Made by a program: the position numbers and the translations under genes | In this document: piece after piece, positions 22,698-40,261 of the stretch | Numbering within the stretch: position 1 is the first letter of the stretch | Layout: the number at the start of each line of letters is the position of its first letter | The notes under the pieces: generated by a model | The model's input: the letters and a program-made list of their open reading frames with translations, nothing else | Told to the model about the DNA's origin: nothing | Databases searched by the model: none | NCBI GenBank assembly: GCA_019240305.1 | Contig: JAFAYP010000270.1 | Span: forward strand, 1-40,627 | Length of the DNA stretch: 40,627 nt | DNA from: Solirubrobacterales bacterium | GTDB taxonomy: Bacteria; Actinomycetota; Thermoleophilia; Solirubrobacterales; Solirubrobacteraceae | Reading direction: 5' to 3'

Positions 22698-22713
22698 GCC
22701 ATAGTACGAGAGA
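22698..22713. promoter_or_regulatory. 16-nt divergent promoter region, GT2 / Wzz-kinase
   Basis: ATAGTA (22701-22706) reads TACTAT on the minus strand, and TAGTAC (22702-22707) ends 6 nt before the ATG at 22714 on the plus strand. The opposing boxes overlap almost fully. TAGTAC is an imperfect -10 (last base C). No Shine-Dalgarno serves the plus-strand gene. Confidence 0.4.
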
Positions 22714-25661: not shown

Positions 25662-26791
25662 TGGCTGACCGCCGCTTGCGCGTCCTGTTCGTGATGGACC
25701 ACGTGGCGTCCTGGGGCGGCGCCGAGCGCTTCGCTGCCGGACTGGCCGCCCACATGCCACGCGAGGAGATCGAGCCATGGCTGTGCTGCACCCGCAGCGG
25801 GGACGACCACGCGGTCAGCGCGCTCCTCGATGCCGGCGTGCGCTACGTGAGCCTTGGTCGCCGGGCCAAATGGGATGTTCACCGCCTCCTGCCGCTGTTC
25901 GACATGGTCCGACGCGAGCGCTTCGACGTCATCCATTCCCACATGTTCGGCTCGAACGTGTGGTCCAGCCTCGCCGGACGGGCCTGCCGAGTGCCGGTGA
26001 TCATCGCCCACGAGCACAACTGGTCCTACACCGGGGATCGTCTGCGGATGTGGCTGGACGGCCATCTGATTAGTCGGTTCGCGACCTGCTTCGTGGCGGT
26101 TTCTGAGGCCAACCGTCAGCGGATGATTAAGCTGGAGGGCGTCCCCGCCGAGACGATCAAGGTGATCCCGACCGCCTACGTGCCCCACCTGGGTCCCGTC
26201 GATGGCAACATTCGCGACGAGCTCGGCCTGTCTGCGGAGGTGCCGGTGATCGGCGTAGCGGCGGTCATGCGCAAGGAGAAGGCCCTCGAGGTGATGCTCG
26301 ACGCGCACGCCCGGCTGCTTGGGCGACTTCCCGCGGCTCGCCTGGTGATCGCCGGAGACGGTCCGTGCCGGCCCGCGCTCGAGCACCAGATCGACCGGCT
26401 GGGCATCGCCGCGAACGTCCACCTCCTCGGACGCCGCAACGACGTCGATCAGATCCTCCAGGGGGTGGATGTCGGCGCCCTATGCTCCGACTGGGAGGGA
26501 TCGCCTCTGTTCGTGTTGGAGTGCAAGGCAGCGCGGGTCCCGGTCGTGGCGACCGCAGTGGGCGGCGTGTCCGAACTGGTGGAGAACGGCCGGACAGGCC
26601 TGCTGGTTCCTCCCCGTGACCCGGCCGCGCTGGCCGAGGCAATCGAGCGGGTGCTGACCAACCGGGAACTGTCCGCGCGGCTCGCCGCCGAGGCGGCCAG
26701 CGATCTTGAGCAATTCGAGATCGCGAGCGTCGCGCGCCGGTTCGCCGATCTGTATCGGCAACTCGTCGCCGACACGGTGGCCCCGGCATGA
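25661..26791 (+). CDS. Family 4 glycosyltransferase
   Basis: Retaining GT-B transferase of 376 residues. VLFVMDHVASWGGAERFAAG (8-27) is the N-terminal glycine loop, HSHMFGSNVWSSLAG and CFVAVSEANRQRM follow, and the C-terminal donor domain shows VIGVAAVMRKEKALEVMLDA, LVIAGDGPCRPALE, VHLLGRRNDV and the E-x7-E stretch SDWEGSPLFVLECKAARVPV with VATAVGGVSELVENGRTGLL. Start ATG 25661 overlaps the polymerase stop by one base; the frame is open upstream but only antisense-like there. It overlaps the deacetylase gene by 4 nt. Confidence 0.92.
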   Translation: MADRRLRVLFVMDHVASWGGAERFAAGLAAHMPREEIEPWLCCTRSGDDHAVSALLDAGVRYVSLGRRAKWDVHRLLPLFDMVRRERFDVIHSHMFGSNVWSSLAGRACRVPVIIAHEHNWSYTGDRLRMWLDGHLISRFATCFVAVSEANRQRMIKLEGVPAETIKVIPTAYVPHLGPVDGNIRDELGLSAEVPVIGVAAVMRKEKALEVMLDAHARLLGRLPAARLVIAGDGPCRPALEHQIDRLGIAANVHLLGRRNDVDQILQGVDVGALCSDWEGSPLFVLECKAARVPVVATAVGGVSELVENGRTGLLVPPRDPAALAEAIERVLTNRELSARLAAEAASDLEQFEIASVARRFADLYRQLVADTVAPA

Positions 26792-27564
26792 GCGACGTGC
26801 TGGTGCTCTGCTATCACGCGGTCAGCCCAACCTGGGGGGCGACCTTCTCGGTCAGCCCCGACGTTCTGGAGCGCCAGATCTCCTTGCTCCTCAAGTGGGG
26901 ATGGCAGGGCGCGAGATTCACCGACGCCGTGCTGAACCCGCCGGCGGACCGGACGCTCGCGGTCACCTTCGACGACGGCTTCGCTTCCGTGTTCGAGCGC
27001 GCCGCGCCGATCCTCTCGGCTCTCGGGGTGCCCGCTACGGTGTTCGCACCCACCTCATTCATGTCCACCAACCAGGAGCTGCGCTGGGACGGGATCGAGG
27101 GCTGGCGGGGCACGCGCGACGCTCACGAGCTGCTGTGCATGAACTGGCAGCAACTCGGTGAGCTCGCCGACCGCGGCTGGGAGATCGGGTCGCACACCTG
27201 TACACATCCGCACCTGAGGAGGCTGTCCGAGGAGGCCGTCCGGGAGGAGTTGCTTAAGTCACGCGAGCATTGCTCTGAGCAGCTCGGCTCACCGTGTCGC
27301 TCGGTCGCCTATCCCTACGGCGAGGTCGATGGTCGGATTGCCGACATTGCTTCAGAGGTCGGCTACCTGGCCGGGGCGTGCCTCTCGCACAGCATGGCGC
27401 GGCGCGGCCCGCACCTGTGGCCGCGGGTGGGCGTGTTCCACGGTGACTTCGAGCTACGCTTCCGGCTCAAGGTCTCGCCCCTGATCCGGTCGCTCCGAGC
27501 GGTTCGCGTGGGCCGCTCGAGGCCGCTTCAGCCGCTCAGTAGCGCGACGCACCGATCGACGTAG
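26788..27564 (+). CDS. Polysaccharide deacetylase (NodB fold)
   Basis: CE4 enzyme of 258 residues, probably removing N-acetyl or O-acetyl groups from the polysaccharide or its precursor. After LVLCYHAVSP (5-14), LAVTFDDGFAS (57-67) supplies D62/D63, SHTCTH (135-140) supplies the metal ligands H136 and H140, and YPYGEVDG is motif 3. A final catalytic His is less clear (VGVFHGDFE). No signal peptide, so it acts inside or is exported some other way. It is the last gene of the plus-strand series, with ATGA coupling to the GT4 gene, and its last 37 nt overlap the oppositely oriented transferase-like gene. Confidence 0.88.
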   Translation: MSDVLVLCYHAVSPTWGATFSVSPDVLERQISLLLKWGWQGARFTDAVLNPPADRTLAVTFDDGFASVFERAAPILSALGVPATVFAPTSFMSTNQELRWDGIEGWRGTRDAHELLCMNWQQLGELADRGWEIGSHTCTHPHLRRLSEEAVREELLKSREHCSEQLGSPCRSVAYPYGEVDGRIADIASEVGYLAGACLSHSMARRGPHLWPRVGVFHGDFELRFRLKVSPLIRSLRAVRVGRSRPLQPLSSATHRST

Positions 27565-28535
27565 TAGCCGGCCAGCTGGTCGGGATGAAGGTAGCGCGCG
27601 TGGTACTCGCGCGCGGCGCGGGCGAGCCGATCGCGCTGCGCGTCGTCGGCCAGCAACCCGGCGCAGATGTCGACCAGGTTCGACAGATCGCCGGCCGCGA
27701 AGCGAATGTTGACCCCGTCGGTCAGCGGAACGTGCAGCGCCGTCTGCGGCTGCGGTCGGACGATCGTGCACCCCACCGCGAGATAGTCGACCAGGCGATG
27801 GCACATGTCGCCGTTACCCGGCAAATCGATGCACACCCGGCTGAGCGCCGCTTCGCGAAGATACGCCGAGTAGGGTCGGGTCACCAGGCTTCCCTCGAAC
27901 CGGAAGCGCCGCTGACTGGAGAGCAGCTCGATCGCCCGGCGCCTCGTGTCCTGCGCGTACTGCGCGCCAAAGCGCCCGTACACCTCAAACCGGGGAGGCG
28001 AATGCTCGCGCAGCCGGTGCAGGGCGGGAAGGTAGCGGTAGATGCTGGTCTTGCCCGGCACGTATCCGCCCGGGATCACGTGCCCGTGCCCATAGCCTCC
28101 GGCTGCGTACTGCATCTTGAACACGAGCGGACACCGCTCGGCCACCTCGTTGAGCAAACGCGAGCGGTCGAAGTAATCGATCGCCACCTCGTGACGGAAA
28201 CCGTCGAGCACGACCTCGATCAGCACGATGCCCTCGTATGGCTGCTCGATCTCCTCCGGAGTCACCGACACGAGCCGGGCGATGCCCGCGCGCAGGCTCC
28301 CCACCCAGTGCCCGGCGAGCGGCCATTGATAGCTGACCGGCCAGCGGACGGCAAGGCGCGCTCGGGTCTGCGGGCTGATCGGCCAGGTCGGCCCGGGCGG
28401 TGAGGGCTCCGCGCCGATGCGCCGTCCGGTGGCCGCCGAGAAGTGAGCGAGCGCGTAGGCATGCTGCGCGCTCGCGATGCTCACAGAGCGAAGCCGGGTC
28501 AGCCCCCGCTCCAGGCGGGCGCGCGAGCCGCTCAT
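27528..28535 (-). CDS. Glycosyltransferase-like protein, family uncertain (335 aa)
   Basis: Cytoplasmic protein. The C-terminal half resembles the donor domain of CgeB/Glyco_trans_1_2-type transferases: FEVYGRFGAQYAQDTRRRAI, PYSAYLREAALSRVCIDLPG, NGDMCHRLVDYLAVGCTIVR, then GVNIRFAAGDLSNLVDICAG and a closing helix ending LAGYYVDRCVALLSG. The N-terminal half (EEIEQPYEGIVLIEVVLDGF, VAIDYFDRSRLLNEVAERCP, MQYAAGGYGHGHVIPGGYVP) is not a usual GT-B nucleotide fold. Start ATG 28535 overlaps the flippase stop by 4 nt, giving the operon GT2-flippase-this gene; the frame upstream of it is antisense-like. Confidence 0.7.
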   Translation of the reverse strand: MSGSRARLERGLTRLRSVSIASAQHAYALAHFSAATGRRIGAEPSPPGPTWPISPQTRARLAVRWPVSYQWPLAGHWVGSLRAGIARLVSVTPEEIEQPYEGIVLIEVVLDGFRHEVAIDYFDRSRLLNEVAERCPLVFKMQYAAGGYGHGHVIPGGYVPGKTSIYRYLPALHRLREHSPPRFEVYGRFGAQYAQDTRRRAIELLSSQRRFRFEGSLVTRPYSAYLREAALSRVCIDLPGNGDMCHRLVDYLAVGCTIVRPQPQTALHVPLTDGVNIRFAAGDLSNLVDICAGLLADDAQRDRLARAAREYHARYLHPDQLAGYYVDRCVALLSG

Positions 28536-30079
28536 CGGGGCACGGACGCCAGCCGGATCCGCGCGGCGAGGTGCCGCAGCTCGGCGAGCGAGATCTCGCG
28601 GCTGAGGAGCAGCGTCGCCAGGTAGGCAGCGAGCCCGCCCGCACCGCCCACCACCCAGTCCAGGACCGACAGGTGATCCACGCCCATGGCCAGCATCGGA
28701 ACGGTCATGGCCGCTGCCGCGAGCAGCGTGCGCAGCAGCGAACGCGTGAGCAGCGCGAACTCGACGGCGAACAGGCGGCTGCACAGCCATAGATGCGCCG
28801 ACACGTACACGACCTGGACGAGATCGTCCGCGACCGCCGCACCGAGCAGACCCATCACCCGCAGCAGGACGTAGGTCGAGACGATCCCGAGGGCGAGCGT
28901 GGCCAGCATGATCATCACGCGACGGCGCCCCTCGCCGAGGTAGCTGACCGACACCGAGGCCAGCGAAGCCGGCGCGGACACGAATGCCTGCACGGTCAAC
29001 ACCCGCAGGATGGCCGGCGAGCTCGAGTATCCGTGACCGAGCAGCAGCCCGACGATCGGCTTGGGCCACACGAGCATCGGTGCGATCACCAGTCCCTGGA
29101 CGATGAGAAGGTAGCGGAGCGCCGCATTGAACGTCCGGGTGTCGGGCGCGCCGCCGCCGAGCGACAGCCGGGGGGCAACCCCACCAGACACCGCGATGCC
29201 GAGGTAGCCGAGCAGCGTCAGGATCTTCAGCACCGCGCCGAAGCTGCCGACCGCCGCGCTCGATAGCAACGCGCCGATCAGCAGGATGTCCATCTGGGCG
29301 ATCGCCTGCCAGGTTGCGTTCACCACGAACAGCACGCCCGCGTAGCTCACGATCGAGCGGGTGTGCACGGCGGATGGCAGGACGCCGCGCCGGCGCATGC
29401 CGCCGAGCAGGCGCGAGACGAGCACGAACCCGGCTACGGCGGCCACCGCGTAGCCGATCGCCTTGCCGAGCAGTGCACCCGCCGCGCCCGCGCCGGCCAG
29501 CACGAGCGCGACCGCCGCGAACGTCTCGATCGCGCTCTCGATCACGACCATCCACAGGCTGCCCGAGATGCGCCGAATCGACATGCAGGTGGACGTGAAC
29601 AGCCCGAAGATCGCCTGGGCGACCACCGCGCAGCCCATCCAGCGCAGGGGCCAGCCCAGCGCCGGATGCCCGTAGGCGTCGGCGATGGCGCCCGCGAGCG
29701 CGAACAGCCCCGCCCCGCTCACAAGCGCCGCCGGCACCTGGAGCTTCAATCCCAGGGCGAGGATGGCGCGCATCTGGCCCACATCGGATCGGTGGTCGGC
29801 AAGAAAGCGGCCCACCGCGGTGGGGAGGCCCAGCCCGGCCGGCAGCAGCGCGAGGCCACCGATGCTGTAGGCGAGCGAGTAGATGCCGTAGCCCGAGGCG
29901 CCGAGCTTGCGAACCAGGAACAGGGTCAGCCCGGACGTGAACGCCGCCGTGGCCACCTGGGTGAGGAACTGGAGGACCGTGTTGCGCATTGCCCCGGGAT
30001 CGGACACGGCATGAGGCAGGGGCGGGTCCCCTATCTGCTCAGGCCCCGGCTCCGGTCGCTTTCGTCCGCCGAGCGGCAT
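28532..30079 (-). CDS. Polysaccharide flippase (Wzx/MATE-like)
   Basis: Integral membrane protein of 515 residues with about 12-14 helices, moving lipid-linked repeat units across the membrane. The conserved start of the family is visible: RNTVLQFLTQVATAAFTSGL followed by RKLGASGYGIYSLAYSIGGL and GLGLPTAVGRFLADHRSDVG. ATG 30079 lies 18 nt after the upstream GT2 stop and is used here; ATG 29989, just before MRNTVLQF, is the alternative because the 30 residues between are Pro/Gly/Arg-rich with no obvious structure. The open frame upstream of 30079 runs antisense to nothing meaningful and overlaps the GT2 gene. Confidence 0.9.
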   Translation of the reverse strand: MPLGGRKRPEPGPEQIGDPPLPHAVSDPGAMRNTVLQFLTQVATAAFTSGLTLFLVRKLGASGYGIYSLAYSIGGLALLPAGLGLPTAVGRFLADHRSDVGQMRAILALGLKLQVPAALVSGAGLFALAGAIADAYGHPALGWPLRWMGCAVVAQAIFGLFTSTCMSIRRISGSLWMVVIESAIETFAAVALVLAGAGAAGALLGKAIGYAVAAVAGFVLVSRLLGGMRRRGVLPSAVHTRSIVSYAGVLFVVNATWQAIAQMDILLIGALLSSAAVGSFGAVLKILTLLGYLGIAVSGGVAPRLSLGGGAPDTRTFNAALRYLLIVQGLVIAPMLVWPKPIVGLLLGHGYSSSPAILRVLTVQAFVSAPASLASVSVSYLGEGRRRVMIMLATLALGIVSTYVLLRVMGLLGAAVADDLVQVVYVSAHLWLCSRLFAVEFALLTRSLLRTLLAAAAMTVPMLAMGVDHLSVLDWVVGGAGGLAAYLATLLLSREISLAELRHLAARIRLASVPR

Positions 30080-30096
30080 CGATGCCGGCGTTTGCC

Positions 30097-31083
30097 TCAG
30101 GCCGTGGCCGCTCGCCGTCGCGTACGACGTTGGCGACGGCGACCGGCCAGCTTCCCGTAGGCGAGCGGTCGCGGGCCGAGCAGTCCGAGACCCAGGATGA
30201 TCCACACCTTGCCGTGGCGCGAGCCCGAGCGGATCGCCTCCCAGGTGTGGCGGGCGCCCCGGCGGCGATCTCCGGCGAGGAACGCCTGGGTCGCGGCGCG
30301 CTCGGTCAGCGCCCGCCGCGTGAGCGGGGCAAGCCGGTCGAGCGCGGATCCGTGCTCGGCAAGCATCGTCTCAGCCATCCAGAGATCGTCGGGGGCTTCC
30401 CGCAGCAGCCGCGAGATCACACGGCTCGCATTCGCGTCCCGCGAATGGCTGTTCGCCGCGTCGACATGCTGCTTGCCGAGGATATCCGGAACCCAGAGGC
30501 TCTGCTCCCGGCGAGCGAGGTCCGTCTCCCAGAGTCCCTCCACCGCTCCACGGCGGTCCTCGAAGAAGTTCGTCGCCTCGAACACCGAGCGATGGATGCA
30601 GTGGCCGGCGTCGGAGCTGGCTCGGGCGATGGTCAGCTCCTCGAGCCAGTGCAGGCGCTCGTCATACCCGGTGATCCCGCTGGGCAGGATCCCCGGCTGG
30701 ACGGTGCCGTCGGCCGCCTCCAGGCGGCTGCGGATGATGTGCACGCCGGCCGGGAGCTCATCGATCAGCGCGCGCAGGCGGGCGAGCGCGTGGGAAAAGA
30801 GCTCCCAGTCGGAGTCGAGGAACACGAGCCATTCACCCCGGGCGTGCTTGACGCCGGTGGCGCGCGCGGCGGAGATCCCTCGATTGCGCTCATGCTGCAC
30901 GATCCGCAGTCGCGACTCTCCGAGCGCTGTCAGTACGCTGACGGTCCCGTCGGCGGAGGCGTCGTCGACCACGACGATCTCGAGGTCGCGGAACGTCTGC
31001 TGGGTACAGCTCCGAACCGCCCGCTGCACCTCGTGGACCCGGTTGTAGGTGCTGATCAGCACACTGAAGAACGGACCTGGCAT
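30097..31083 (-). CDS. Family 2 glycosyltransferase
   Basis: GT-A transferase of 328 residues: SVLISTYNRVHEVQRAVRSC (7-26), EIVVVDDASADGTVSVLTAL, RGISAARATGVKHARGEW and the DxD in VFLDSDWELF. The second half has the acceptor-side HWLEELTIA and CIHRSVFEATNFFED, and a basic tail (GRRRQRRTRRR). No membrane anchor beyond a short hydrophobic stretch near 300. Start ATG 31083 follows TACCCT by 8 nt without a Shine-Dalgarno. Diverges from the GT4 gene by 26 nt and leads the operon with flippase and the unassigned transferase. Confidence 0.9.
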   Translation of the reverse strand: MPGPFFSVLISTYNRVHEVQRAVRSCTQQTFRDLEIVVVDDASADGTVSVLTALGESRLRIVQHERNRGISAARATGVKHARGEWLVFLDSDWELFSHALARLRALIDELPAGVHIIRSRLEAADGTVQPGILPSGITGYDERLHWLEELTIARASSDAGHCIHRSVFEATNFFEDRRGAVEGLWETDLARREQSLWVPDILGKQHVDAANSHSRDANASRVISRLLREAPDDLWMAETMLAEHGSALDRLAPLTRRALTERAATQAFLAGDRRRGARHTWEAIRSGSRHGKVWIILGLGLLGPRPLAYGKLAGRRRQRRTRRRAATA

Positions 31084-31109
31084 CGTCGCGGAGGGTAGAA
31101 CGTCGATTC
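31084..31109. promoter_or_regulatory. Divergent GT2/GT4 promoters sharing a TA step
   Basis: Minus strand TACCCT (31097-31092) and plus strand TAGAAC (31096-31101) share TA at 31096-31097, and each ends exactly 8 nt before its start codon (ATG 31083 and ATG 31110). This mirrors the menE/menB gap. TAGAAC departs from TANNNT in its last base. Confidence 0.45.
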
Positions 31110-32258
31110 ATGAGGCTGGCCGTCTACACCGACTACGTGTACCGCCGCGTCGATGGCGTCGTCTACGCGGAACGCGCCTTTGCCGTGTTCCTGGCTGCCC
31201 TGCTCCCCCACGTCGAGCAGCTGCGAATGCTCGGCCGGCTCGACCCGGCGGGCGGCCCGACGCGGTATGCCCTTCCCCCCGGGGTTGAGCTCGTCGGCCT
31301 GCCGCATTACGCGAGCCTGGCCAACCCGGTCCACGCGCTGCGCTCGACACCCACGGCGATACGCCGCATGTGGCGGGCGCTCGACGGGATCGACGTCGTC
31401 TGGGTGCTCGGCCCTCATCCCCACGCGGTGCTGCTCGCGCTCGTCGCCCTGGCGCATCGGACCCCGCTGGTCATCGGGGTGCGCCAGGACTGGCCGAGCT
31501 ACGTCCGGATGCGCCGCCCCCGGAAGCGATGGATGCACCTCTCGGCGGACTTGCTCGAGTCGATCTGGCGCACGCTCGCGCGCCGAGTGCCGGTGGTGGC
31601 GGTCGGACCGGACCTGAGCGCCAAGTACGCGCGCGCGCCGGCCGTGCTCGACCTGGTGGTCTCGCTGGTCCCCGCGGCCGAGCTCGAGCAGCCGCCGCGG
31701 GCGATCGATTACACCGCCGAGCGGCAGATCCTCAGCGTGGGTCGCCTGGACGAGGAGAAGAACCCGCTGCTGCTGGCCGAGGTGCTCGCGCTCCTGCGCC
31801 GTGAGGACGAGCGCTGGCGCCTGCGCGTGTGCGGCGAGGGCGACCTCGCCGGCGCGCTGGCCGACCGGCTCACCGCACTCGGCCTCCGGGAGCACGCCGA
31901 CCTGCTGGGCTATGTCCCCCTCGGAGCGGAGCTGTTCGAGCTCTATCGCTCGAGCCACGTTCTGCTGCATGCCTCGTGGACCGAGGGCTTCCCGCAGGTG
32001 CTCGCCGAGGCGTTCGCGTGCGGCCTGCCGGTCGTGGCCACCGACGTCGGCGGAGTTCGCGCCGGAGTGGACGGCGCCGGCTTGCTGATTGCCCCCGGCG
32101 ACGCCCGGGCCGCCGCGGACGCCCTGTTGCTCCTCGCGCGCGACGCCGACCTTCGGGCGCGGTTGACCCGAGCCGGGCGGGATCGTGCGCGCGAGCTCAC
32201 GCTCGAGGCTCAGACCGGGCGCCTGGCCGCCTTCCTGCGGACGGCGCCGCGCCGGTGA
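31110..32258 (+). CDS. Family 4 glycosyltransferase
   Basis: GT-B transferase of 382 residues. The N-terminal domain (MRLAVYTDYVYRRVDGVVYA) is less standard, with VWVLGPHPHAVLLALVALAH and VRQDWPSYVRMRRPRKRWMH. The C-terminal donor domain is typical: ILSVGRLDEEKNPLLLAEVL, LRVCGEGDLAGALADRL, ADLLGYVPLGAELFELYRSS, then WTEGFPQVLAEAFACGLPVV with the E-x7-E pair and ATDVGGVRAGVDGAGLLIAP. Acceptor and donor unknown. It is a single gene between two oppositely directed ones and ends 13 nt from the convergent membrane glycosyltransferase gene. Confidence 0.91.
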   Translation: MRLAVYTDYVYRRVDGVVYAERAFAVFLAALLPHVEQLRMLGRLDPAGGPTRYALPPGVELVGLPHYASLANPVHALRSTPTAIRRMWRALDGIDVVWVLGPHPHAVLLALVALAHRTPLVIGVRQDWPSYVRMRRPRKRWMHLSADLLESIWRTLARRVPVVAVGPDLSAKYARAPAVLDLVVSLVPAAELEQPPRAIDYTAERQILSVGRLDEEKNPLLLAEVLALLRREDERWRLRVCGEGDLAGALADRLTALGLREHADLLGYVPLGAELFELYRSSHVLLHASWTEGFPQVLAEAFACGLPVVATDVGGVRAGVDGAGLLIAPGDARAAADALLLLARDADLRARLTRAGRDRARELTLEAQTGRLAAFLRTAPRR

Positions 32259-32271
32259 GAGCTGCGGCGGC

Positions 32272-34038
32272 TCAGCCGCTGGACAGGACCCGGTAGGAGT
32301 CGCCCGTCCCCGCCACCGGGGTCCATCCCGGGGCCGATCGCGCGGCCGCCTCGTCGCTCACCGCGACGCGTGCGCCCGAACGTGCTTGCAGTAATGCGAG
32401 GCGCCTGGCTTGATTGCCCGGGGGCAGTCGCCAGAAGGCGCCGTCCGCGTCCTTGATGTTGCCGACGACGCGGGCGTGGTCGAGCCGCGCGTAGTAGGCG
32501 CGCGGCACTCCGGCGGCGTCGCCCACGAATGCGATGCCGTCGCCGGGACCGATCCCGGCGCGCGTCAGGGCTCGCGCGACCCGCAGGTCGGTGGTGCCCG
32601 GCGCATCGCGTCCGCTCACCTGGAGGGCGACGTGGTCGAGCGGCTTGACCGCCGCGTACGCGAAGGTGAGCACGGCGACCAGGGCGGTGACCAGCGCGAG
32701 CCCGTCGACCATCGAGTTCGACAGCCCCTCCCGCCGGTGCCAGCCGCACACGAGCATGAACCACGTGATCGCGAGTATCGCGATGTACGGCGCGATGTAG
32801 CGAGCCTGGGTGATCAGCGGGAGATAGGTCAGGATGCCGGCGACCGGTAGCGCGAGATACGCGTGGCGGCGCACCGCGACCCACGCCCGCCGGGGCACCG
32901 GCTGCGGGGCGTCGGGGCCTTCGGCCGGTCGCGCGCCGCGATCGCGCCTGCGGACCCGCCACAGCATCAACACGGGCGCGAGGAGCAGGATCAGAGGGCC
33001 GACCAGCGCGAAGTGCAGCGTGTCACGGACGCTGTGCGCGATCGCGCGTAGCTGGCCGCCGACGACGAACTTCGCCCGGACGCCCTGATACCAGTATGCG
33101 GGGTCGTACCAGAGCGGAATGCTCCCGGCGATCGGCGCCGGGTACGCGAACGTTTCCGGCGAGGTGGCGATCAGAGTCGGATGCAGCGGTCGGCCGAACT
33201 CGCCGTTCCCTCCGGTCCAGTTGGTGAACGGGGTCACGCCGTCGACGTCCCACGCGTAGTTGAGCGTCCCGTAGCTGCCGATCTCGAGCCCACCCTCCTT
33301 GCTCGAGAGGACCGCGATGAACGGCGCGGCAACGCACAAGCAGGCGGCAAACGTCACCCCGAGCGAGACCAGCCGCCGGGTGGCGCTTCCCCCGCTGAGA
33401 ACCGTGGCGGCGGCCAAGGCCACGAGTGCGGGAAATACGAACCCGGATTTCGCCAGATAGCCGAGGCCCAGGACGACCCCCAGGCCCACGCAGGCCAGCG
33501 GTGAGCCACCGACGCGCGCCATCCGCATGAGCAGCGCGCTGGCGGCGAAGACAGCCACCGCAAGCAGCATGTCCGGGGTCACGGCGGTGACGGTCACCTC
33601 CGGAAGCACGACCCAAGCCAGGATCGCGTACGACAGCGCCACCAGCAGCGGCTCGGGGATCAGCGGCCGGAGGCCTCGCTCGCGCAGCAACCCGAACAAC
33701 TCCGACAGCCACCAGGCGAAAGCCCCGAGCAGGACCGCGACAATCGCGACGTTGACCGCCATCACGACGATCAGCTCGTGCGGGCGGGTCGGGCTGAACA
33801 CCTTCAGCGCGGCACCGACGATCCAGGTGTACGCGGGGCTCCAGGCTACGCTCGCGCCCGCCCTGACTCCATGGGCGAACACGGTGTCGCCCAGGTCCAG
33901 GTAGGAGATCCCGTCGGGGTTGATCGCATGGCGGCTGGCCCAGGCATCCCCGGCGGCGAGCACCAGCACGAAGCCCGACAGCCACCACGCCAGTCGCCGA
34001 CGGTTCTCGAGCCAGCGCATCGTCCGCGCCCAGACCAT
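32272..34038 (-). CDS. GT39/ArnT-like integral membrane glycosyltransferase
   Basis: Protein of 588 residues with about eleven hydrophobic helices and an exposed C-terminal part. Near the N-terminus, after the first helix, RHAINPDGISYLDLGDTVFA carries the acidic residue on the first external loop (NPDGISYLD) seen in lipid-phosphate-sugar-using GT-C enzymes; SPAYTWIVGAALKV follows. It would act outside the membrane using a polyprenyl-phosphate sugar. ATG 34038 has GGGGGTG upstream at a good distance; ATG 34020 is an alternative, and the frame further up is not protein-like. It lies 46 nt after the stop of the first beta-helix gene on the same strand. Confidence 0.78.
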   Translation of the reverse strand: MVWARTMRWLENRRRLAWWLSGFVLVLAAGDAWASRHAINPDGISYLDLGDTVFAHGVRAGASVAWSPAYTWIVGAALKVFSPTRPHELIVVMAVNVAIVAVLLGAFAWWLSELFGLLRERGLRPLIPEPLLVALSYAILAWVVLPEVTVTAVTPDMLLAVAVFAASALLMRMARVGGSPLACVGLGVVLGLGYLAKSGFVFPALVALAAATVLSGGSATRRLVSLGVTFAACLCVAAPFIAVLSSKEGGLEIGSYGTLNYAWDVDGVTPFTNWTGGNGEFGRPLHPTLIATSPETFAYPAPIAGSIPLWYDPAYWYQGVRAKFVVGGQLRAIAHSVRDTLHFALVGPLILLLAPVLMLWRVRRRDRGARPAEGPDAPQPVPRRAWVAVRRHAYLALPVAGILTYLPLITQARYIAPYIAILAITWFMLVCGWHRREGLSNSMVDGLALVTALVAVLTFAYAAVKPLDHVALQVSGRDAPGTTDLRVARALTRAGIGPGDGIAFVGDAAGVPRAYYARLDHARVVGNIKDADGAFWRLPPGNQARRLALLQARSGARVAVSDEAAARSAPGWTPVAGTGDSYRVLSSG

Positions 34039-34084
34039 CGATGCACCCCCATGCGTGCGCACCCCCTCCACTGGGTGCGACAGC

Positions 34085-35281
34085 TTACCGAGACGCGGGC
34101 GACCGGACCCCGTGGCGGGTGGCTGGGGTGAACGGCGTGTGCTTGACCACCGGAATCGTCGCCGCGATGCCGTCGACCGCGGCCGCGACATCGCCGACCG
34201 CGAACAGGCACGGGCTGGTCGGCCTCAACCGGTAGTCGTGGGCGCGGGCGTTCACGAACATCGGGTTCACCTTGGCGTTGTTCGAGGCCCGCAGGCCGCC
34301 GCCGGTGACTCCGATCGCGCCCTCGCGGCCGCGCCAGAGACAGTTGTCGTGGACCAGGTTGTCGACGCCCACCGGGTTGCCCTTCGGCCACCACGATTCG
34401 ACGTCGTGACGAACCCTCGAGTTGCTCACGACGTTGTCGTAGATGTTGGTGTGGCTCGAGGCCTCGCCGCCGGTCCCGGAGACGAGGATGCCCTCGCCGT
34501 TGCCGTCGATGATGTTGTGATCGATCGTCGTGTACTCCGCGTCGGGATACAGCTGGATGCCCCGCGCGGCGTTGTCGTAGATCAGGTTCCACTCGATCCG
34601 GGAATCGGTGGCCGCCCCGATGTACAGGCCGTGCTGATAGTTGTCACCTGGGGTCATCTGACCGCAGTCGTGGATGCGACTGTGGGTGATCAGCGTCCCC
34701 GTCGCCCACCCCCACGCCGCGCTCCCGACTCCGAAGCACACGCCGGTGTGATCGTTGGTCACGTCGTCGTAGCTGAACGTGTCGTGGTTGCTGTCGATCA
34801 TCGGGCTTTCGAGTTGCGAGGCGTTTGCCCCGTCGAGCGACAGACCGCGGACGGTCACGTAGTTGGCCCCCCTGGTGATCTCCAAGCGGCCCACGACGTC
34901 CGCGTGCTGCCCGGGATAGGCGGCCAGCACCAGGCGCGCGCTCGGGCTACCTCCCCGGGCGATCCGCACGGCGCCAGCGTAGGTCCCGGCGAGCAGGCAA
35001 CCGGTCTGCCCCGGGCCGAGCGAGTTGACCAGCTGCTGGACGGTGCCAAACGGGTCGCCCAGCGTGCCGGCCGCCGCATCCGAGCCGTTCGGCGCGGCAA
35101 ACCGGTCGCAGGTCGTGGCCCGTGCGGCTTGAGCCGAGGCGGGATCGCGCTGTGCTCCGGCCGATGGGGCCAGCGCGAGCAGCACGAGAACCAACCCGGC
35201 CGCCATGGCCCGCGGGCGTCGCGGACGCCGACGCACCTCTGGCTCGGGGTTATGGTCGTTCGCCTTGATGTTCCCGCCCAT
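34085..35281 (-). CDS. Secreted right-handed beta-helix protein, paralogue 1
   Basis: From ATG 35281: 398 residues, a basic N-region, a hydrophobic signal core (AMAAGLVLVLLALAPSAGA, 25-43), then a DUF1565-like cap (CDRFAAPNGSDAAAGTLGDP and FGTVQQLVNSL) and parallel beta-helix rungs: DSNHDTFSYDDVTNDHTGVC, GWATGTLITHSRIHDCGQM, NYQHGLYIGAATDSRIEWNL, TTIDHNIIDGNGEGILVSG, RHDVESWWPKGNPVGVDN. Six cysteines at 58, 95, 182, 206, 314 and 358 suggest three disulfides. Short basic tail. Beta-helix folds in polysaccharide loci are often lyases, epimerases or surface-binding proteins; no catalytic set can be named. The start is uncertain, as the frame is open to 35335 and no Shine-Dalgarno is seen. Confidence 0.82.
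   Translation of the reverse strand: MGGNIKANDHNPEPEVRRRPRRPRAMAAGLVLVLLALAPSAGAQRDPASAQAARATTCDRFAAPNGSDAAAGTLGDPFGTVQQLVNSLGPGQTGCLLAGTYAGAVRIARGGSPSARLVLAAYPGQHADVVGRLEITRGANYVTVRGLSLDGANASQLESPMIDSNHDTFSYDDVTNDHTGVCFGVGSAAWGWATGTLITHSRIHDCGQMTPGDNYQHGLYIGAATDSRIEWNLIYDNAARGIQLYPDAEYTTIDHNIIDGNGEGILVSGTGGEASSHTNIYDNVVSNSRVRHDVESWWPKGNPVGVDNLVHDNCLWRGREGAIGVTGGGLRASNNAKVNPMFVNARAHDYRLRPTSPCLFAVGDVAAAVDGIAATIPVVKHTPFTPATRHGVRSPASR
34481..34712. repeat. Near-identical block shared with 35989-36220 (copy in paralogue 1)
   Basis: Aligned by eye at a constant offset of 1508 nt, the two blocks differ at about a dozen of 232 positions and at only four within 34481-34644. Flanking parts of the two genes differ far more. 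This points to recent duplication followed by divergence, or to gene conversion in the helix core. Confidence 0.75.
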
Positions 35282-35547
35282 CTCGGAAGCTGAAGCTGAC
35301 CAGTCACAAGCAGCCCCGCAGCGAATCGCGGGCACGCCAAAGCGCGACCGCCCCGCTGCCCGGCTGTCGGACCCTGTACTGCTGCGCGCACCCTGCGTGC
35401 GCGTTCCACCCGCGGCGCGGTTTATACACGTTTCGCCGGCTGGCCGCCCCGGTCAATTTGCCGCTATTTGCACAAATTGGGCGTCTTTCGAGCACGTTTG
35501 CACAGGAAACCTGTCGCTTTTGGCGACGTGCGCGGCTGGCGGAGAGC
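35282..35547. promoter_or_regulatory. Upstream region of beta-helix paralogue 1
   Basis: This 266-nt gap has A+T-rich patches. TATAAA (35426-35421, minus strand) is a -10 candidate for paralogue 1. An inverted repeat CAATTTG (35454-35460) / CAAATTG (35473-35479), two direct copies of TTTGCACA (35467 and 35497, 30 nt apart) and two small overlapping hairpins (ACAGG-AAA-CCTGT at 35502-35514; GTCGC/GCGAC at 35513-35527) are visible. The hairpins could end transcripts of paralogue 2. Confidence 0.4.
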
Positions 35548-36768
35548 TCAGTGCGCTGCGTGGCGGCGGCGACGCCGCAGGTGCTTCTTGTGCGCGTGCC
35601 GGTTGTGATGAGCCTCTTGTATGAGGTCCTGGCGGGTCGCGTCCATGGCGGCCGGCGCGGGCTGCACCGGCGTGGTGCCGTCGACCGCGGCCTGGACGTC
35701 GCCGACGAGGGCCAGGCAGGGGCTGTTCGGGCTCATCTCGTAATCGTGGGTGTTGGCGTTCACGTACTGGGGATTGATGTTCAGGTTCTGCGACGCGCTC
35801 AACCCGCCATCGGAGGTATCGATCGGGCCCTGGCGCCCGCCCCACAGGCAGTTGTTGTGGGCCGTGTTGTCGACGCCCACCGGGTTGCCCACGGGCCACC
35901 AAGACTCCACGTCGTGGCGCACCGTCGCGTCGCTCACGATGTTGTCGTAGATGTTGGTGTGGTTGGTGGCCTTGCCCTCGTCGCCGGAGACGAGGATGCC
36001 CTCGCCGTTGCCGTCGATGATGTTGTGGTCGATCGTCGTGTACTCCGCATCGGGATACAGCTGGATGCCCCGCGCGGCGTTGTCGTAGATCAGGTTCCAC
36101 TCGATCCGGGTATCGGTGGCCGCCCCGATGTACAGGCCATGCTGATAGTTGTCGCCAGAGTTCATCTGACCGCAGTCGTGGATGCGACTGTGAGTGATCA
36201 GCGTGCCGGTCGCCCATCCCCAGATTGGATCTCCCAGCCCGAAGCAGATGCCGGTGTGATCATCGGTCACGTCGTCGTAGCTGAACGTGTCGTGGTTGGA
36301 GTCGACGATCGGGCTCTGCAGGTGCTGGTCGTTTGCCCCATCGAGGGTCAGGCCAGTAACCGTCACGTAGTTCGCTCCCTTGACGATCTCCATCCGTCCG
36401 TACACCGTCGCCGTCTGCCCTGGCGCCGCGGTGAGCGTGAGCGGGGCGCCTGGCTGGCCGGTGTTGGCGATCCGGACGTGGCCGTAGTAGGTGCCCGCGT
36501 CCAGGCAGCCGGTCTGGCCGGCATGAAGCGAGTCGACGACTTCCTGGACCGTGCGGAACGGGTTCTGGTAGCTCCCCGTCCCGGTAGCGGAGCCGCTCGG
36601 CGACGCGAACAAATCGCAGCCGGCGCTGGCTCGTGCCGACGGCGCCAGGACGATCAATGCGACGGCGAGAACCGCGGCGGCGGCCAGCAGCACCGCCAGC
36701 AGCCAGCGATCCGGGAGAGACACCGTGGCCGCGGCATCCTGTCCGGTCGCCGAGTTACTCTCCCACAT
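35548..36768 (-). CDS. Secreted or anchored beta-helix protein, paralogue 2
   Basis: 406 residues from ATG 36768, which has TTGGAGGAA directly before it; GTG 36795 is the alternative. About 20 polar residues precede a long hydrophobic segment (WLLAVLLAAAAVLAVALIVL, 22-41) ending APSARASAG, either a long signal peptide or a membrane anchor. The beta-helix core matches paralogue 1 without an indel between cysteines: C51, C88, C175, C199, C307, C351. The end is unusual: a 20-residue His/Lys/Arg tail (HHNRHAHKKHLRRRRRHAAH). The tail could bind acidic polysaccharide or teichoic-type polymers, which is an inference. Same strand as its two paralogues, separated by gaps of 266 and 144 nt. Confidence 0.84.
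   Translation of the reverse strand: MWESNSATGQDAAATVSLPDRWLLAVLLAAAAVLAVALIVLAPSARASAGCDLFASPSGSATGTGSYQNPFRTVQEVVDSLHAGQTGCLDAGTYYGHVRIANTGQPGAPLTLTAAPGQTATVYGRMEIVKGANYVTVTGLTLDGANDQHLQSPIVDSNHDTFSYDDVTDDHTGICFGLGDPIWGWATGTLITHSRIHDCGQMNSGDNYQHGLYIGAATDTRIEWNLIYDNAARGIQLYPDAEYTTIDHNIIDGNGEGILVSGDEGKATNHTNIYDNIVSDATVRHDVESWWPVGNPVGVDNTAHNNCLWGGRQGPIDTSDGGLSASQNLNINPQYVNANTHDYEMSPNSPCLALVGDVQAAVDGTTPVQPAPAAMDATRQDLIQEAHHNRHAHKKHLRRRRRHAAH
35989..36220. repeat. Near-identical block shared with 34481-34712 (copy in paralogue 2)
   Basis: Partner of the block in paralogue 1. It encodes the rungs from GWATGTLITHSRIHDCGQ to GNGEGILVSG. Paralogue 3 encodes the same rungs but with many more base differences. 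Confidence 0.75.
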
Positions 36769-36912
36769 TTCCTCCAAATCGACCCGCGGGCGCACACTCT
36801 TGAACCCGGCGCGCAGTTTTGTGGATGTTTCCGGGCAGCAACTTCACGATTGCCGCACGGGACTAAAGCCGGATACGGAGGCTCGATGGGGGATTCCCCG
36901 AAACCGGGCGGA
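36769..36912. other. Gap between beta-helix paralogues 3 and 2
   Basis: This 144-nt gap holds the GGAGG before paralogue 2 and a small palindromic stretch GGGGATTCCCC (about 36891-36901) that could help end paralogue 3 transcripts. No clear promoter hexamers were found. Confidence 0.3.
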
Positions 36913-38163
36913 TTAGGGAAGTCTGCGCAGGCTAGGGTGAGCGAGGCGGGCTGTGATCCGCTTTCGTATCGGGTGGCTCGCTCTCCCGCGCCCGGCCGGC
37001 CGACGCGTGCCGTGCTTGAGCTTGCGCGTGGTGCGCTTGGGCTTCGGCTTCGGATGCGCCGGCGAAGTCCGCTTGCCAGTGGACGGCGGGCTCGGCGCTG
37101 CGGGCTGGTCAGGGGCCGTGGTCGCCGCCGTACCATCGACGGCGGCCTGCACGTCGCCGACCAGCGCCAGGCAGGGGCTGTCGGCGGGCATCTCGTAATC
37201 GCGCGTGCTGGCGTCGACGAACTCCGGGTTGACCTGGAGGTTGTCCGTGGCGGTGTAGCCACCTCCCGAGGTGTCGATCGTGCCCTCGCGTCCGCCCCAG
37301 ACGCAGTTGTCGTGCACGCTGTTGTCCACCCCCACCGGGTTGCCGGCCGGCCACCACGACTGCACGTCGTCACGCTGGTTGGAGTCGCTTACGACGTTGT
37401 CGTAGATGTTGTTGTAGCTCGAGGCCGCGCCGTCATCCCCGGCGATGAGGATCCCCTCGCCGTTGTCGTCGATGATGTTGTGATCGATCGTTGTCGACTC
37501 ACCGTCGGGATACAGCTGGATCCCGCGGTCGGCGTTGCCGTAGATCAGGTTCCATTCGATTGTCGTGTCGCTTGCCGAGCCGATGTAGAACCCGTGCTGG
37601 TAGTTGGTCGCGGGGAGCTGCCCGCAGTCGTGGATCCGGCTGTGGGTGACCAGTGTCCCGGTCGCCCACCCGTAGGACCCGGCCCCGATCCCGAAGCAGA
37701 CCCCGGTGTGATGGTTGTTGGTCACGTCGTCGTAGCTGAACGTAACGTGGTTGGCGCCGATCGTCGGGCTGGGAAGCACCTGCGAATTCGTGCCGTCGAG
37801 GTCCAGGCCGGTGATCGTGGTGTAGTCGGCCCCCGCCGCCACGTACATCCGTCCCACGATCGTCGCGGTCTCGCCGGGATAGCTCGTGAGCGTGATCGGG
37901 GCGGTTTCCGTCCCGCCCGTGCGGAATGTCACGTCCTCGTCGTAGGTCCCCGCTCGCAGGCAGCCGGTCTGACCCGCCTGTAGGGTCGAGATGAGCTTCT
38001 GGACGGTCTGGAACGGCGCGGCCAAGGTTCCCGGGTTGGAATCGGACCCCGACGGCGCGGCCACGTACGTGCACGATGTCGCCGCCGCCGTGCTGCTCGC
38101 GGCCGGGACCAGGCAGGCAACCCCCAAGGCAAGGGCGAGGGTTCGTCCGAGGCGCTTCGACAT
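36913..38163 (-). CDS. Secreted right-handed beta-helix protein, paralogue 3
   Basis: 416 residues from ATG 38163: a clean signal peptide (MSKRLGRTLALALGVACLVP, then AASSTAAA), cap CTYVAAPSGSDSNPGTLAAP, and the same rung series (NHVTFSYDDVTNNHHTGVCF, GWATGTLVTHSRIHDCGQ, GIQLYPDGESTTIDHNIIDD, DDVQSWWPAGNPVGVDN). Cysteines C31, C68, C156, C180, C287, C331 keep nearly the spacing of paralogues 1 and 2, with one residue shifted between rungs. After about 350 a Pro/Ala linker leads to a 55-residue Lys/Arg/Pro-rich tail (KRTSPAHPKPKPKRTTRKLK and on). The frame is open to 38238, but the signal peptide fixes the start. Diverges from the second ligase-like gene by 58 nt. Confidence 0.85.
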   Translation of the reverse strand: MSKRLGRTLALALGVACLVPAASSTAAATSCTYVAAPSGSDSNPGTLAAPFQTVQKLISTLQAGQTGCLRAGTYDEDVTFRTGGTETAPITLTSYPGETATIVGRMYVAAGADYTTITGLDLDGTNSQVLPSPTIGANHVTFSYDDVTNNHHTGVCFGIGAGSYGWATGTLVTHSRIHDCGQLPATNYQHGFYIGSASDTTIEWNLIYGNADRGIQLYPDGESTTIDHNIIDDNGEGILIAGDDGAASSYNNIYDNVVSDSNQRDDVQSWWPAGNPVGVDNSVHDNCVWGGREGTIDTSGGGYTATDNLQVNPEFVDASTRDYEMPADSPCLALVGDVQAAVDGTAATTAPDQPAAPSPPSTGKRTSPAHPKPKPKRTTRKLKHGTRRPAGRGRASHPIRKRITARLAHPSLRRLP

Positions 38164-38221: not shown

Positions 38222-40261
38222 ATGACCAGCCCGCTCACCCGCGGCGCCTGGGATCATGCGGCGGCGGTGACGCGCGCGACGACCTTCCAGCGACTCAGAC
38301 CGCATGCGCTGACGCTGGTGGCGGGGGTGGTTGGGGTCGTGCTGATGCTCGTGTGGGCCGTGCACGACGGCGGCTACGACAAGGACACCTGGTACTGGGG
38401 TGCCCTCGTGATGGTGGCCCTCGTGGCCGTCCTCGCGATCGCCCGCGGTCCACGACCCCTGCCGCGGGCGGTCGGGCTCGCCCTGACCGCGTTCGCGCTC
38501 TACACCGCCTGGTCGTACCTGTCGATCAGCTGGGCCCAGTCCCCCGGAGACGCGCTGGACGGCAGCAATCGCACCCTGCTCTTCCTCCTGATCTTCACCT
38601 CGATGGTGCTGCCTCCGTGGACGGCGCGCGGCACGCTGGCGGCGCTGCTGGTGTTCGCCACCGGCATCGGCGTGACCGCGGTTGTCCTCCTGTTCAGGCT
38701 CGCCTCGGCCGAGCATGTGTCCGGCCTGTTCATCGAGGGCCGGCTGGCGGCTCCCACCGGTTACTTCAACTCGACCGCCGCGCTGTTCACGATGGGGGCT
38801 CTCACTGCGGTCGCGCTGGCGGCGCGACGCGAGCTGCCCGCTCCGGCGCGGGGCCTGCTGCTCGCCTTTGCCTGTGCCGAGCTCCAGCTCGCGCTCGTCG
38901 GGCAGAGCCGGGGGTGGCTGTTCACCCTGCCGCTGGTGGCGCTTGTGGCGATCGTTATCGTCCGGGATCGCCTGCGCGTCGTGCTGTGCGCCGTGCTACC
39001 GGCAGCCGGGACCCTGGTGGCGCTCCATCGGCTGCTCGACGTCTACAAGGCGGGCTCGGGCTCCCCGCTCGAGCACGCTGCGGCGCACGCGGGCCGTCCC
39101 GGGCTGCTCGCCTGCGCGGCGGTTTTCTTCGTGGCCACTCTGGTGGCCTGGGCCGACCACCTCCTGCCCGTGCCGCGGATCAGCCCGGCGCGCCGGCGAG
39201 CGCTCGGCACACTCGTGGCCGTGGTGGTCGCGGTGGCCGCGGTAACCGGCGCCCAGGCTGCCACGCACGGTCACCCCGTGCGCTTCATCGAGCGCCAGTG
39301 GAACGGCTTCAGCCATCCCCAGGGCACCTCCGGTTCGCATTTCGCCGCCGTGGGCACCGTCCGCTACGACTTCTGGCGGGTGGCCCTCGACGCGTTCGTG
39401 GCGCACCCGGTCGAGGGACTCGGTCAGGACAACTTCCTCAACTACTACACCCCCCGCCGGCGCAGCGCTCAAGAGCCGTCCTACGTCCATAGCCTGGAGC
39501 TTCGTCTGCTCACCCATACGGGGGTAGTCGGCTTCGTGCTCTTCGGGGTGTTCCTGGTGGCCGCGCTGGCCGCGGCGCTCCCCGCTCGTCGGCGAGGGGG
39601 TCTCGAGGCCGCGGTGGCCGGCGCCGCGCTCCTTGCGCTCGTGGTCTGGGTGATCCACGGATCGGTCGACTGGTTCTGGGAGATGCCAGCCCTGTCTGGC
39701 CCGGCCCTCGGGTTTCTGGGGATGGCCGGGGGTCTGAGCGCGTCACCGGACGGCGTCATCGGAGTCGAACCGGTCCGGCCCGGTGCTCGCACCTGGGGTG
39801 CCCTGACCGCCACGCTCGGCATCCTCGCCCTGCTGGGCGCCACGGTCGTGCTGGCCTTCCCGTACCTAGCTGTGCGAGAGGTCTCGATCGCCACCAATCT
39901 CCGGGGGGTCGACCCCGGGCGGGCCCTGGCCAGGCTCCAGACGGCAGCCGACCTCAATCCGCTGAGCGCCGATCCCGGGCGCCTGGCTGGAACCATCGCG
40001 CTGGAGTCCGGGCGCTATGCCGTGGCCGCGGAGCGCTTCGGTCAGGTCACCGCCCGCGACCCCGGCGGCTGGTTCGGGTGGCTTGGCACCGGCCTGGCCG
40101 CGTCGGCCCTCGGCGACCGAAGCTCCGCGCGCTCAGACCTCGAGCGGGCGGCGTCGATCGAGCGCGACAACACCGCGATCAGCGCCGCGCTTGCCCGCGT
40201 CGACACGTCCCATCCGCTGGCTCCGCTCACGGCGCTGCAGCTGCTGGTGGTAGCGGGTTGA
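38222..40261 (+). CDS. Wzy/O-antigen ligase-like protein with TPR-like tail
   Basis: 679-residue membrane protein with about twelve hydrophobic helices. The Wzy_C loop is present: RFIERQWNGFSHPQGTSGSH (about 355), TVRYDFWRVALDAFVAHPVE and GLGQDNFLNYY, then PSYVHSLELRLLTHTGVVGF with the expected R...H pattern. After the last helix (about 530-550), a helical repeat region (RALARLQTAADLNPLSADPG, RYAVAAERFGQVTARDPGGW, ARSDLERAASIERDNTAISA) resembles three TPR units, placed outside the membrane. It is the second such protein in the locus, so it may be the ligase or a polymerase for a second polymer. ATG 38222 is chosen because the frame further up overlaps paralogue 3; no good ribosome-binding site is seen. 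Confidence 0.85.
   Translation: MTSPLTRGAWDHAAAVTRATTFQRLRPHALTLVAGVVGVVLMLVWAVHDGGYDKDTWYWGALVMVALVAVLAIARGPRPLPRAVGLALTAFALYTAWSYLSISWAQSPGDALDGSNRTLLFLLIFTSMVLPPWTARGTLAALLVFATGIGVTAVVLLFRLASAEHVSGLFIEGRLAAPTGYFNSTAALFTMGALTAVALAARRELPAPARGLLLAFACAELQLALVGQSRGWLFTLPLVALVAIVIVRDRLRVVLCAVLPAAGTLVALHRLLDVYKAGSGSPLEHAAAHAGRPGLLACAAVFFVATLVAWADHLLPVPRISPARRRALGTLVAVVVAVAAVTGAQAATHGHPVRFIERQWNGFSHPQGTSGSHFAAVGTVRYDFWRVALDAFVAHPVEGLGQDNFLNYYTPRRRSAQEPSYVHSLELRLLTHTGVVGFVLFGVFLVAALAAALPARRRGGLEAAVAGAALLALVVWVIHGSVDWFWEMPALSGPALGFLGMAGGLSASPDGVIGVEPVRPGARTWGALTATLGILALLGATVVLAFPYLAVREVSIATNLRGVDPGRALARLQTAADLNPLSADPGRLAGTIALESGRYAVAAERFGQVTARDPGGWFGWLGTGLAASALGDRSSARSDLERAASIERDNTAISAALARVDTSHPLAPLTALQLLVVAG

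What the first reader, a model, noticed from the sequence alone, without database searches (positions are those of the whole stretch)
34085..38163. Three tandem secreted beta-helix proteins with a fixed six-cysteine frame and variable basic tails
Cysteine spacings are 37/87/24/108/44 in paralogues 1 and 2 and 37/88/24/107/44 in 3, so three disulfides probably staple a common helix, while N-terminal export signals (signal peptide or anchor) and C-terminal tails (short, His/Lys/Arg-rich, Lys/Pro-rich) differ. Position between a membrane glycosyltransferase and a second ligase-like protein suggests a set of polymer-modifying or polymer-binding surface proteins, perhaps held to acidic polysaccharide by the tails. 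I know of no described system of this form.
Basis: partly seen in the sequence, partly recalled or inferred. Interest (0 to 1): 0.7.

Follow-up and report, generated by a model that had tools for sequence, protein, structure and literature searches.

The report
Tandem beta-helix proteins for slime sugars
Three neighbouring genes encode secreted coil-shaped proteins, each probably held by three disulfide bonds and sitting among the genes that build the cell's sugar coat; they belong to a family that keeps one shared sugar-handling core while swapping its tails, so they most likely trim or bind the bacterium's own polymer at different places.

Summary
Three tandem secreted right-handed beta-helix genes (BH1-BH3) share six invariant cysteines at exactly the stated spacings and end in different tails. 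They form a family of Thermoleophilia, also found in another actinobacterial class. All six cysteines align in 45 of 63 homologues. Co-loss pairs C3-C4 and C5-C6 clearly, C1-C2 less cleanly. The genes end a Wzx/Wzy-type exopolysaccharide (EPS) cluster, and this link recurs: 29 of 59 family genes lie within 15 kb of a Wzy_C gene (2.3 expected), against about 1 of 43 other beta-helix genes in the same genomes. The core model is confident (pLDDT 93) and matches polysaccharide lyases, hydrolases and epimerases. A family-specific HGxY motif and a conserved Tyr sit where a related hydrolase has its active site.

New here: tandem copies share cores by gene conversion while tails diverge. In one genome two neighbours share a 1033-bp signal-plus-core tract at 99.7%, yet one tail carries PKD and carbohydrate-binding domains and the other is basic. 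BH1/BH2 carry a shorter tract. Best reading: secreted EPS-tailoring or EPS-binding modules with swappable address tails. Activity is unproven. The kind is known (AlgG, WceF, RbmB); the family appears undescribed.

The parts
34085..35281 (-). BH1: secreted six-Cys right-handed beta-helix protein (398 aa from ATG 35281; ORF open to GTG 35335); short, weakly basic tail
35548..36795 (-). BH2: secreted six-Cys beta-helix protein, His/Arg/Lys-rich tail (core modelled, pLDDT 92.9)
36913..38163 (-). BH3: secreted six-Cys beta-helix protein, Lys/Pro/Arg-rich tail (likely ATG at 38163; ORF open to 38238)
34088..34195 (-). BH1 tail after the core (36 aa)
35551..35703 (-). BH2 tail after the core (51 aa, ends HHNRHAHKKHLRRRRRHAAH)
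36916..37158 (-). BH3 tail after the core (81 aa, Lys/Pro/Arg-rich, net charge +17 over last 50 residues)
34427..34666 (-). part of BH1 core with near-identical synonymous sites to BH2: probable gene-conversion tract (partner about 35935-36174)
   Evidence: 28/30 four-fold sites identical against about half elsewhere, p=6e-6; not seen against BH3
32272..34071 (-). multi-spanning membrane protein without Pfam match, GT-C-like by eye; starts 13 bp after BH1, likely same transcript
38222..40261 (+). Wzy_C (O-antigen ligase/polymerase-like) protein with TPRs, divergent from BH3
   Evidence: counterpart recurs in homologous loci
19993..32258 (.). rest of the EPS cluster: Bac_transf initiating transferase 19993-21534, GT2 21531-22655, Wzz-like 22714-24300, Wzy 24300-25661, GT4 25658-26791, polysaccharide deacetylase 26788-27564, GT 27528-28535, Wzx flippase 28532-30007, GT2 30097-31083, GT4 31110-32258

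Best explanation
BH1-BH3 are exported, disulfide-braced parallel beta-helix proteins that act on the exopolysaccharide made by the adjoining Wzx/Wzy pathway. The core binds the polymer along its groove and most likely cleaves or epimerises it, with His219, Tyr222 and Tyr247 (BH2 numbering) as the probable active-site residues. The tails, and in relatives lipoprotein anchors or CBM/PKD domains, decide where the core sits: membrane, wall, matrix or free. Tandem duplication plus gene conversion keeps the cores matched to the cell's own polymer while tails diverge. Shown: fold by confident model, export signal by inspection, Cys conservation and pairing by co-loss, EPS-locus association, family-specific motif, core conversion with tail divergence. 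Inferred: that it is an enzyme, its chemistry, and what the tails do.
For: Fold: pLDDT 92.9, pTM 0.91. Top structural matches are nearly all polysaccharide enzymes: BT_1002 GH (Z 30.8), Pel9A (28.7), PL9 rhamnogalacturonan lyase (28.6), alginate lyase 6kfn (28.0), AlgE4/6 epimerases (25-26), VexL and RbmB (about 23). Locus: 29 of 59 places within 15 kb of Wzy_C against 2.3 expected. Other beta-helices in the same genomes gave 3 of 45, two of which proved to be family members; corrected 31/61 against 1/43, p=2e-8. Same neighbours (initiating transferase, CpsB, deacetylase, Wzz, Wzy, GTs) at the family, order and class levels and in a second class. HGxY in 57 of 63 members and in none of 18 control beta-helices that are not members; H219 and Y222 60/63 each, Y/F247 59/63. 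Y222-Y247-S270 lie in the column that holds D382/E405 in xylosidase XylC (PMC8954004). Tails: PKD and CBM_4_9 on one of two core-identical neighbours.
Against: No conserved Lys or Arg/Lys pair and no conserved carboxylate pair of known beta-helix lyases or hydrolases was recognised; the XylC catalytic Asp and Glu are Tyr and Ser here, so a non-catalytic binder is possible. Shared beta-helix fold alone does not show function. Some members are remote from any EPS gene. The polymer is unknown. No coordinates were available to measure whether the conserved residues cluster.
Confidence: 0.6

Rival explanations
1. Non-catalytic matrix or adhesin proteins: the beta-helix binds the EPS (or bridges EPS to the wall) as a lectin-like structural component, and the basic or CBM tails add further contacts.
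For: No canonical catalytic set recognised; basic tails and CBM/PKD extensions; WceF itself aggregates with its EPS like a lectin (PMC7949094); adhesin PfbA is among structural matches.
Against: Highly family-specific conserved His/Tyr residues in the groove region of the helix are more than a scaffold needs; closest folds are mostly enzymes.
Confidence: 0.28
2. Periplasm-side or cell-surface assembly factor: like AlgG, needed for export or protection of the polymer during synthesis, any enzymatic effect being secondary.
For: Constant placement between initiating transferase/CpsB and deacetylase or polymerase genes; BH1 only 13 bp from the next membrane protein gene; lipoprotein-like N-termini in some relatives.
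Against: Present in about 9% of class genomes whereas Wzy_C is in every genome searched, though only family-bearing genomes were searched for it; several copies per genome and megaplasmid copies.
Confidence: 0.08
3. Generic secreted carbohydrate-degrading proteins for foreign glycans (plant or algal), placed here by chance.
For: Fold matches to pectin, alginate and xylan enzymes; a few isolated family genes.
Against: Strong, repeated linkage to EPS genes, not shared by other beta-helices.
Confidence: 0.04

Closest known systems
WceF of Pantoea stewartii (EPS-cluster beta-helix hydrolase, PMC7949094)
   Same: Secreted right-handed beta-helix encoded inside a Wzy-type EPS cluster and acting on the cell's own polymer
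   Different: WceF is a 736-aa tailspike-like trimer with a Tat signal in a Gram-negative; here about 310-aa six-Cys cores, several copies per genome with variable tails; homology between the two was not tested
RbmB of Vibrio cholerae (VPS lyase, PMC11637428)
   Same: Beta-helix protein acting on its own biofilm polysaccharide; structural match Z about 23
   Different: Calcium-linked PL6-like lyase; six-Cys frame and tandem tail variants are not reported for it
AlgG / AlgE mannuronan C5-epimerases
   Same: Beta-helix fold (AlgE4/6 Z 25-26; AlgG in Foldseek list); AlgG lies in the alginate locus; two distant relatives here also carry RTX repeats like AlgE R-modules
   Different: No DPHD motif in BH1-BH3; unlike loci
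PL9 lyases (Pel9A, BT rhamnogalacturonan lyase) and GH120 xylosidase XylC
   Same: Best Foldseek match Pel9A (E 1.6e-8) and best sequence-profile match XylC (E 3.5e-10)
   Different: XylC catalytic Asp/Glu replaced by Tyr/Ser; no family-wide Lys as in PL9
PGAP 'right-handed parallel beta-helix repeat-containing protein' (e.g. WP_217925019.1, Miltoncostaea oceani)
   Same: This is a member of the family itself
   Different: Named by fold only; no family model or function given

Membership tests
Right-handed parallel beta-helix superfamily (Pfam PF13229) | Profile match above cut-off and beta-helix fold | tested here: met
   36.8-45.9 bits against cut-off 25.9; AF2 model pLDDT 92.9
Six-Cys Thermoleophilia EPS beta-helix family (defined here) | Six Cys at 37/~87/24/~107/44 and HGxY motif | tested here: met
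   45/63 with all six aligned; HGxY 57/63 against 0/18 non-member controls
Six-Cys Thermoleophilia EPS beta-helix family (defined here) | Linked to Wzy-type EPS genes | tested here: met
   29/59 against 2.3 expected; other beta-helices 3/45 before and 1/43 after correction
GH120 (XylC) | Catalytic Asp382 and Glu405 | tested here: not met
   HMM alignment puts Tyr247 and Ser270 there (residues from PMC8954004)
PL9 (Pel9A) | Catalytic Lys with Asp calcium site | tested here: inconclusive
   No Lys conserved at 80% in 63 members, but no residue-level structural alignment was available
Mannuronan C5-epimerases (AlgG/AlgE) | DPHD motif | tested here: not met
   Absent from the translations of BH1-BH3; motif from general knowledge
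NosD (nitrous oxide reductase maturation) | NCBIfam NosD model above cut-off | tested here: not met
   20.8-30 bits against cut-off 300
WceF-type EPS hydrolase | Hydrolysis of own EPS | not testable with these tools
   Needs purified protein and polymer

The most novel reading that the evidence does not exclude
A widespread actinobacterial system in which one polymer-specific beta-helix core is copied in tandem and homogenised by gene conversion, so all copies keep matching the cell's own changing EPS, while each copy carries a different tail that sends the same activity to a different place (membrane lipoprotein, wall or matrix through basic tails, CBM/PKD-bearing form).
Probability: 0.4. Interest if true: 0.65.

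Novelty: new variant of a known kind. Interest (0 to 1): 0.5.

Why it matters
The EPS-tailoring beta-helix enzymes used for comparison here come from Gram-negatives, and no description was found of how these soil and marine actinobacteria remodel their coats. A family with constant cores and swapped tails gives a natural experiment on how one glycan-acting module is addressed to different sites, and a handle on the polymer each locus makes. The conversion pattern also predicts that core and polymer structure co-evolve, which can be tested.

Tried and rejected
Generic beta-helix gene near EPS by chance: rejected by the control. NosD, GH120 and AlgE/AlgG membership: rejected. First related-loci scan with the three-sequence alignment found nothing; a broad alignment worked. 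Viral origin: only two remote viral contigs at 25% identity and no annotated phage. The C-terminal domain of an order-level relative modelled poorly (pLDDT 59), so its fold was not searched; only that it may be a beta domain is suggested. Families absent from the VIA-align rows are not excluded. Literature searches found no description of this family.

Full report
OBSERVATION. The three ORFs exist as described; BH2 and BH3 are 67% and 60% identical to BH1, and they share six Cys at 37/87/24/108/44 (BH1, BH2) and 37/88/24/107/44 (BH3). Their tails are 36, 51 and 81 aa. Pfam gives PF13229 well above cut-off for all three. The likely starts are 35281, 36795 and 38163; the divergent Wzy_C/TPR gene starts at 38222, and BH1 ends 13 bp before the next membrane protein gene.

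SURROUNDINGS. Window 20-40 kb is a Wzx/Wzy EPS cluster: Bac_transf initiating transferase, Wzz-like, Wzy, Wzx, several glycosyltransferases, polysaccharide deacetylase, and the second Wzy_C/TPR protein. The 32272-34071 protein has no Pfam match; its GT-C nature is by eye only. The genome is an incomplete MAG (73%, 633 contigs) with just these three copies found.

FAMILY. 37 of 399 class genomes carry a match at E<=1e-30, and 4 genomes of another family in the same phylum but outside the class do too. A GTDB scan gave named loci from Solirubrobacteraceae, Conexibacter, other Thermoleophilia, and MAGs labelled Rubrobacter and Chloroflexi. In the tree the window trio groups together (SH-aLRT 90; BH1+BH2 98), and several other tandem pairs group by genome, so duplication has happened many times.

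CYSTEINES. All six align in 45 of 63 members. C3 and C4 are present or absent together in 63 of 63 (57 both, 6 neither); C5 and C6 in 58 of 59 scored; C1-C2 show five discordant rows that look like alignment offsets at the N-terminus. Combined with the strand order of the model, the pairs 1-2, 3-4 and 5-6 are the natural reading. This is inference, since distances were not measured.

EPS LINK. Of 59 family places, 29 lie within 15 kb of a listed Wzy_C hit, 2.3 expected under uniform placement; many of the rest are on short contigs. Places are not independent, so the P value there is not to be taken literally. The control is cleaner: other PF13229 genes of the same genomes gave 3 of 45, of which two proved to be family members by profile; corrected 31/61 against 1/43. 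Only 20 of the 45 controls were checked by sequence. The shared neighbourhood (initiating transferase, CpsB/CapC, BH, deacetylase, GT4, Wzy, Wzz, GT2, GT4) is visible in L055, L062, L066, L067, L069 and others (CpsB). In two complete single-contig genomes outside the class, three BH genes lie in one EPS locus with sulfotransferase genes next to them, which hints at a sulfated, acidic polymer there.

FOLD AND SITE. The BH2 core model has pLDDT 92.9 and pTM 0.91. Foldseek best is PL9 Pel9A (E 1.6e-8); VIA-align Z values are 30.8 for BT_1002, 28.7 Pel9A, 28.6 rhamnogalacturonan lyase, 28.0 alginate lyase 6kfn, 25-26 AlgE. By sequence profile the best solved relative is XylC (E 3.5e-10), whose catalytic Asp382 and Glu405 (PMC8954004) align with Tyr247 and Ser270 of BH2, so GH120 chemistry is not supported. 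His219, Tyr222 and Tyr/Phe247 are kept in 60, 60 and 59 of 63 members, also in most Cys-less ones, and HGxY is absent from all 18 non-member control beta-helices. A His/Tyr-based lyase or epimerase is the likeliest chemistry, but a binder is not excluded.

TAILS AND CONVERSION. Tails range from almost none to 535 aa: basic, Pro-rich plus basic, RTX repeats (L061 above the Pfam cut-off; weak in L108), PKD plus CBM_4_9. 14 of 28 tails of 50 aa or more reach the 95th percentile of C-terminal charge among 497 neighbouring proteins. Four order-level relatives share a recognisable C-terminal domain (25-35% identity). In L070 two tandem genes share a 1033-bp tract at 99.7% covering signal peptide and core, and nothing of the tail; both tail types recur in a second genome (L072), where cores group by genome and tails by type. 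The first genome appears to be Miltoncostaea oceani, because its second contig has the length of, and an identical family gene to, NZ_CP064357. The same genome has a near-identical core with a third tail on its megaplasmid. In the window, BH1 and BH2 share 28 of 30 four-fold sites over BH1 residues 224-303 against about half elsewhere (p=6e-6), and neither shows this with BH3, so a conversion tract is likelier than constraint.

CONCLUSION. Secreted disulfide-braced beta-helix modules that act on or bind the cell's own EPS, with swappable address tails. The kind is known (WceF, RbmB, AlgG); the family, its cysteine frame and its constant-core/variable-tail evolution appear undescribed in the library searched.

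Noticed in passing
L070:7851-12211 (G169, apparently Miltoncostaea oceani chromosome): Two neighbouring genes with a 1033-bp, 99.7% identical signal-plus-core tract and unrelated C-terminal tails (PKD+CBM_4_9 against basic).
   Followed up: yes
L141, L142, L056: Sulfotransferase genes beside the beta-helix genes in EPS loci, suggesting a sulfated polymer in those organisms.
   Followed up: partly
window:32272-34071: 599-aa multi-spanning membrane protein with no Pfam match, directly downstream of BH1.
   Followed up: partly
L061, L108: Two relatives carry RTX calcium-binding repeats after the beta-helix, like AlgE epimerase R-modules (weak in L108).
   Followed up: no
window:8619-17946: Menaquinone-type genes (UbiA prenyltransferase, MR_MLE enzyme, chorismate-binding enzyme) next to apparent acetolactate synthase subunit genes.
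   Followed up: no
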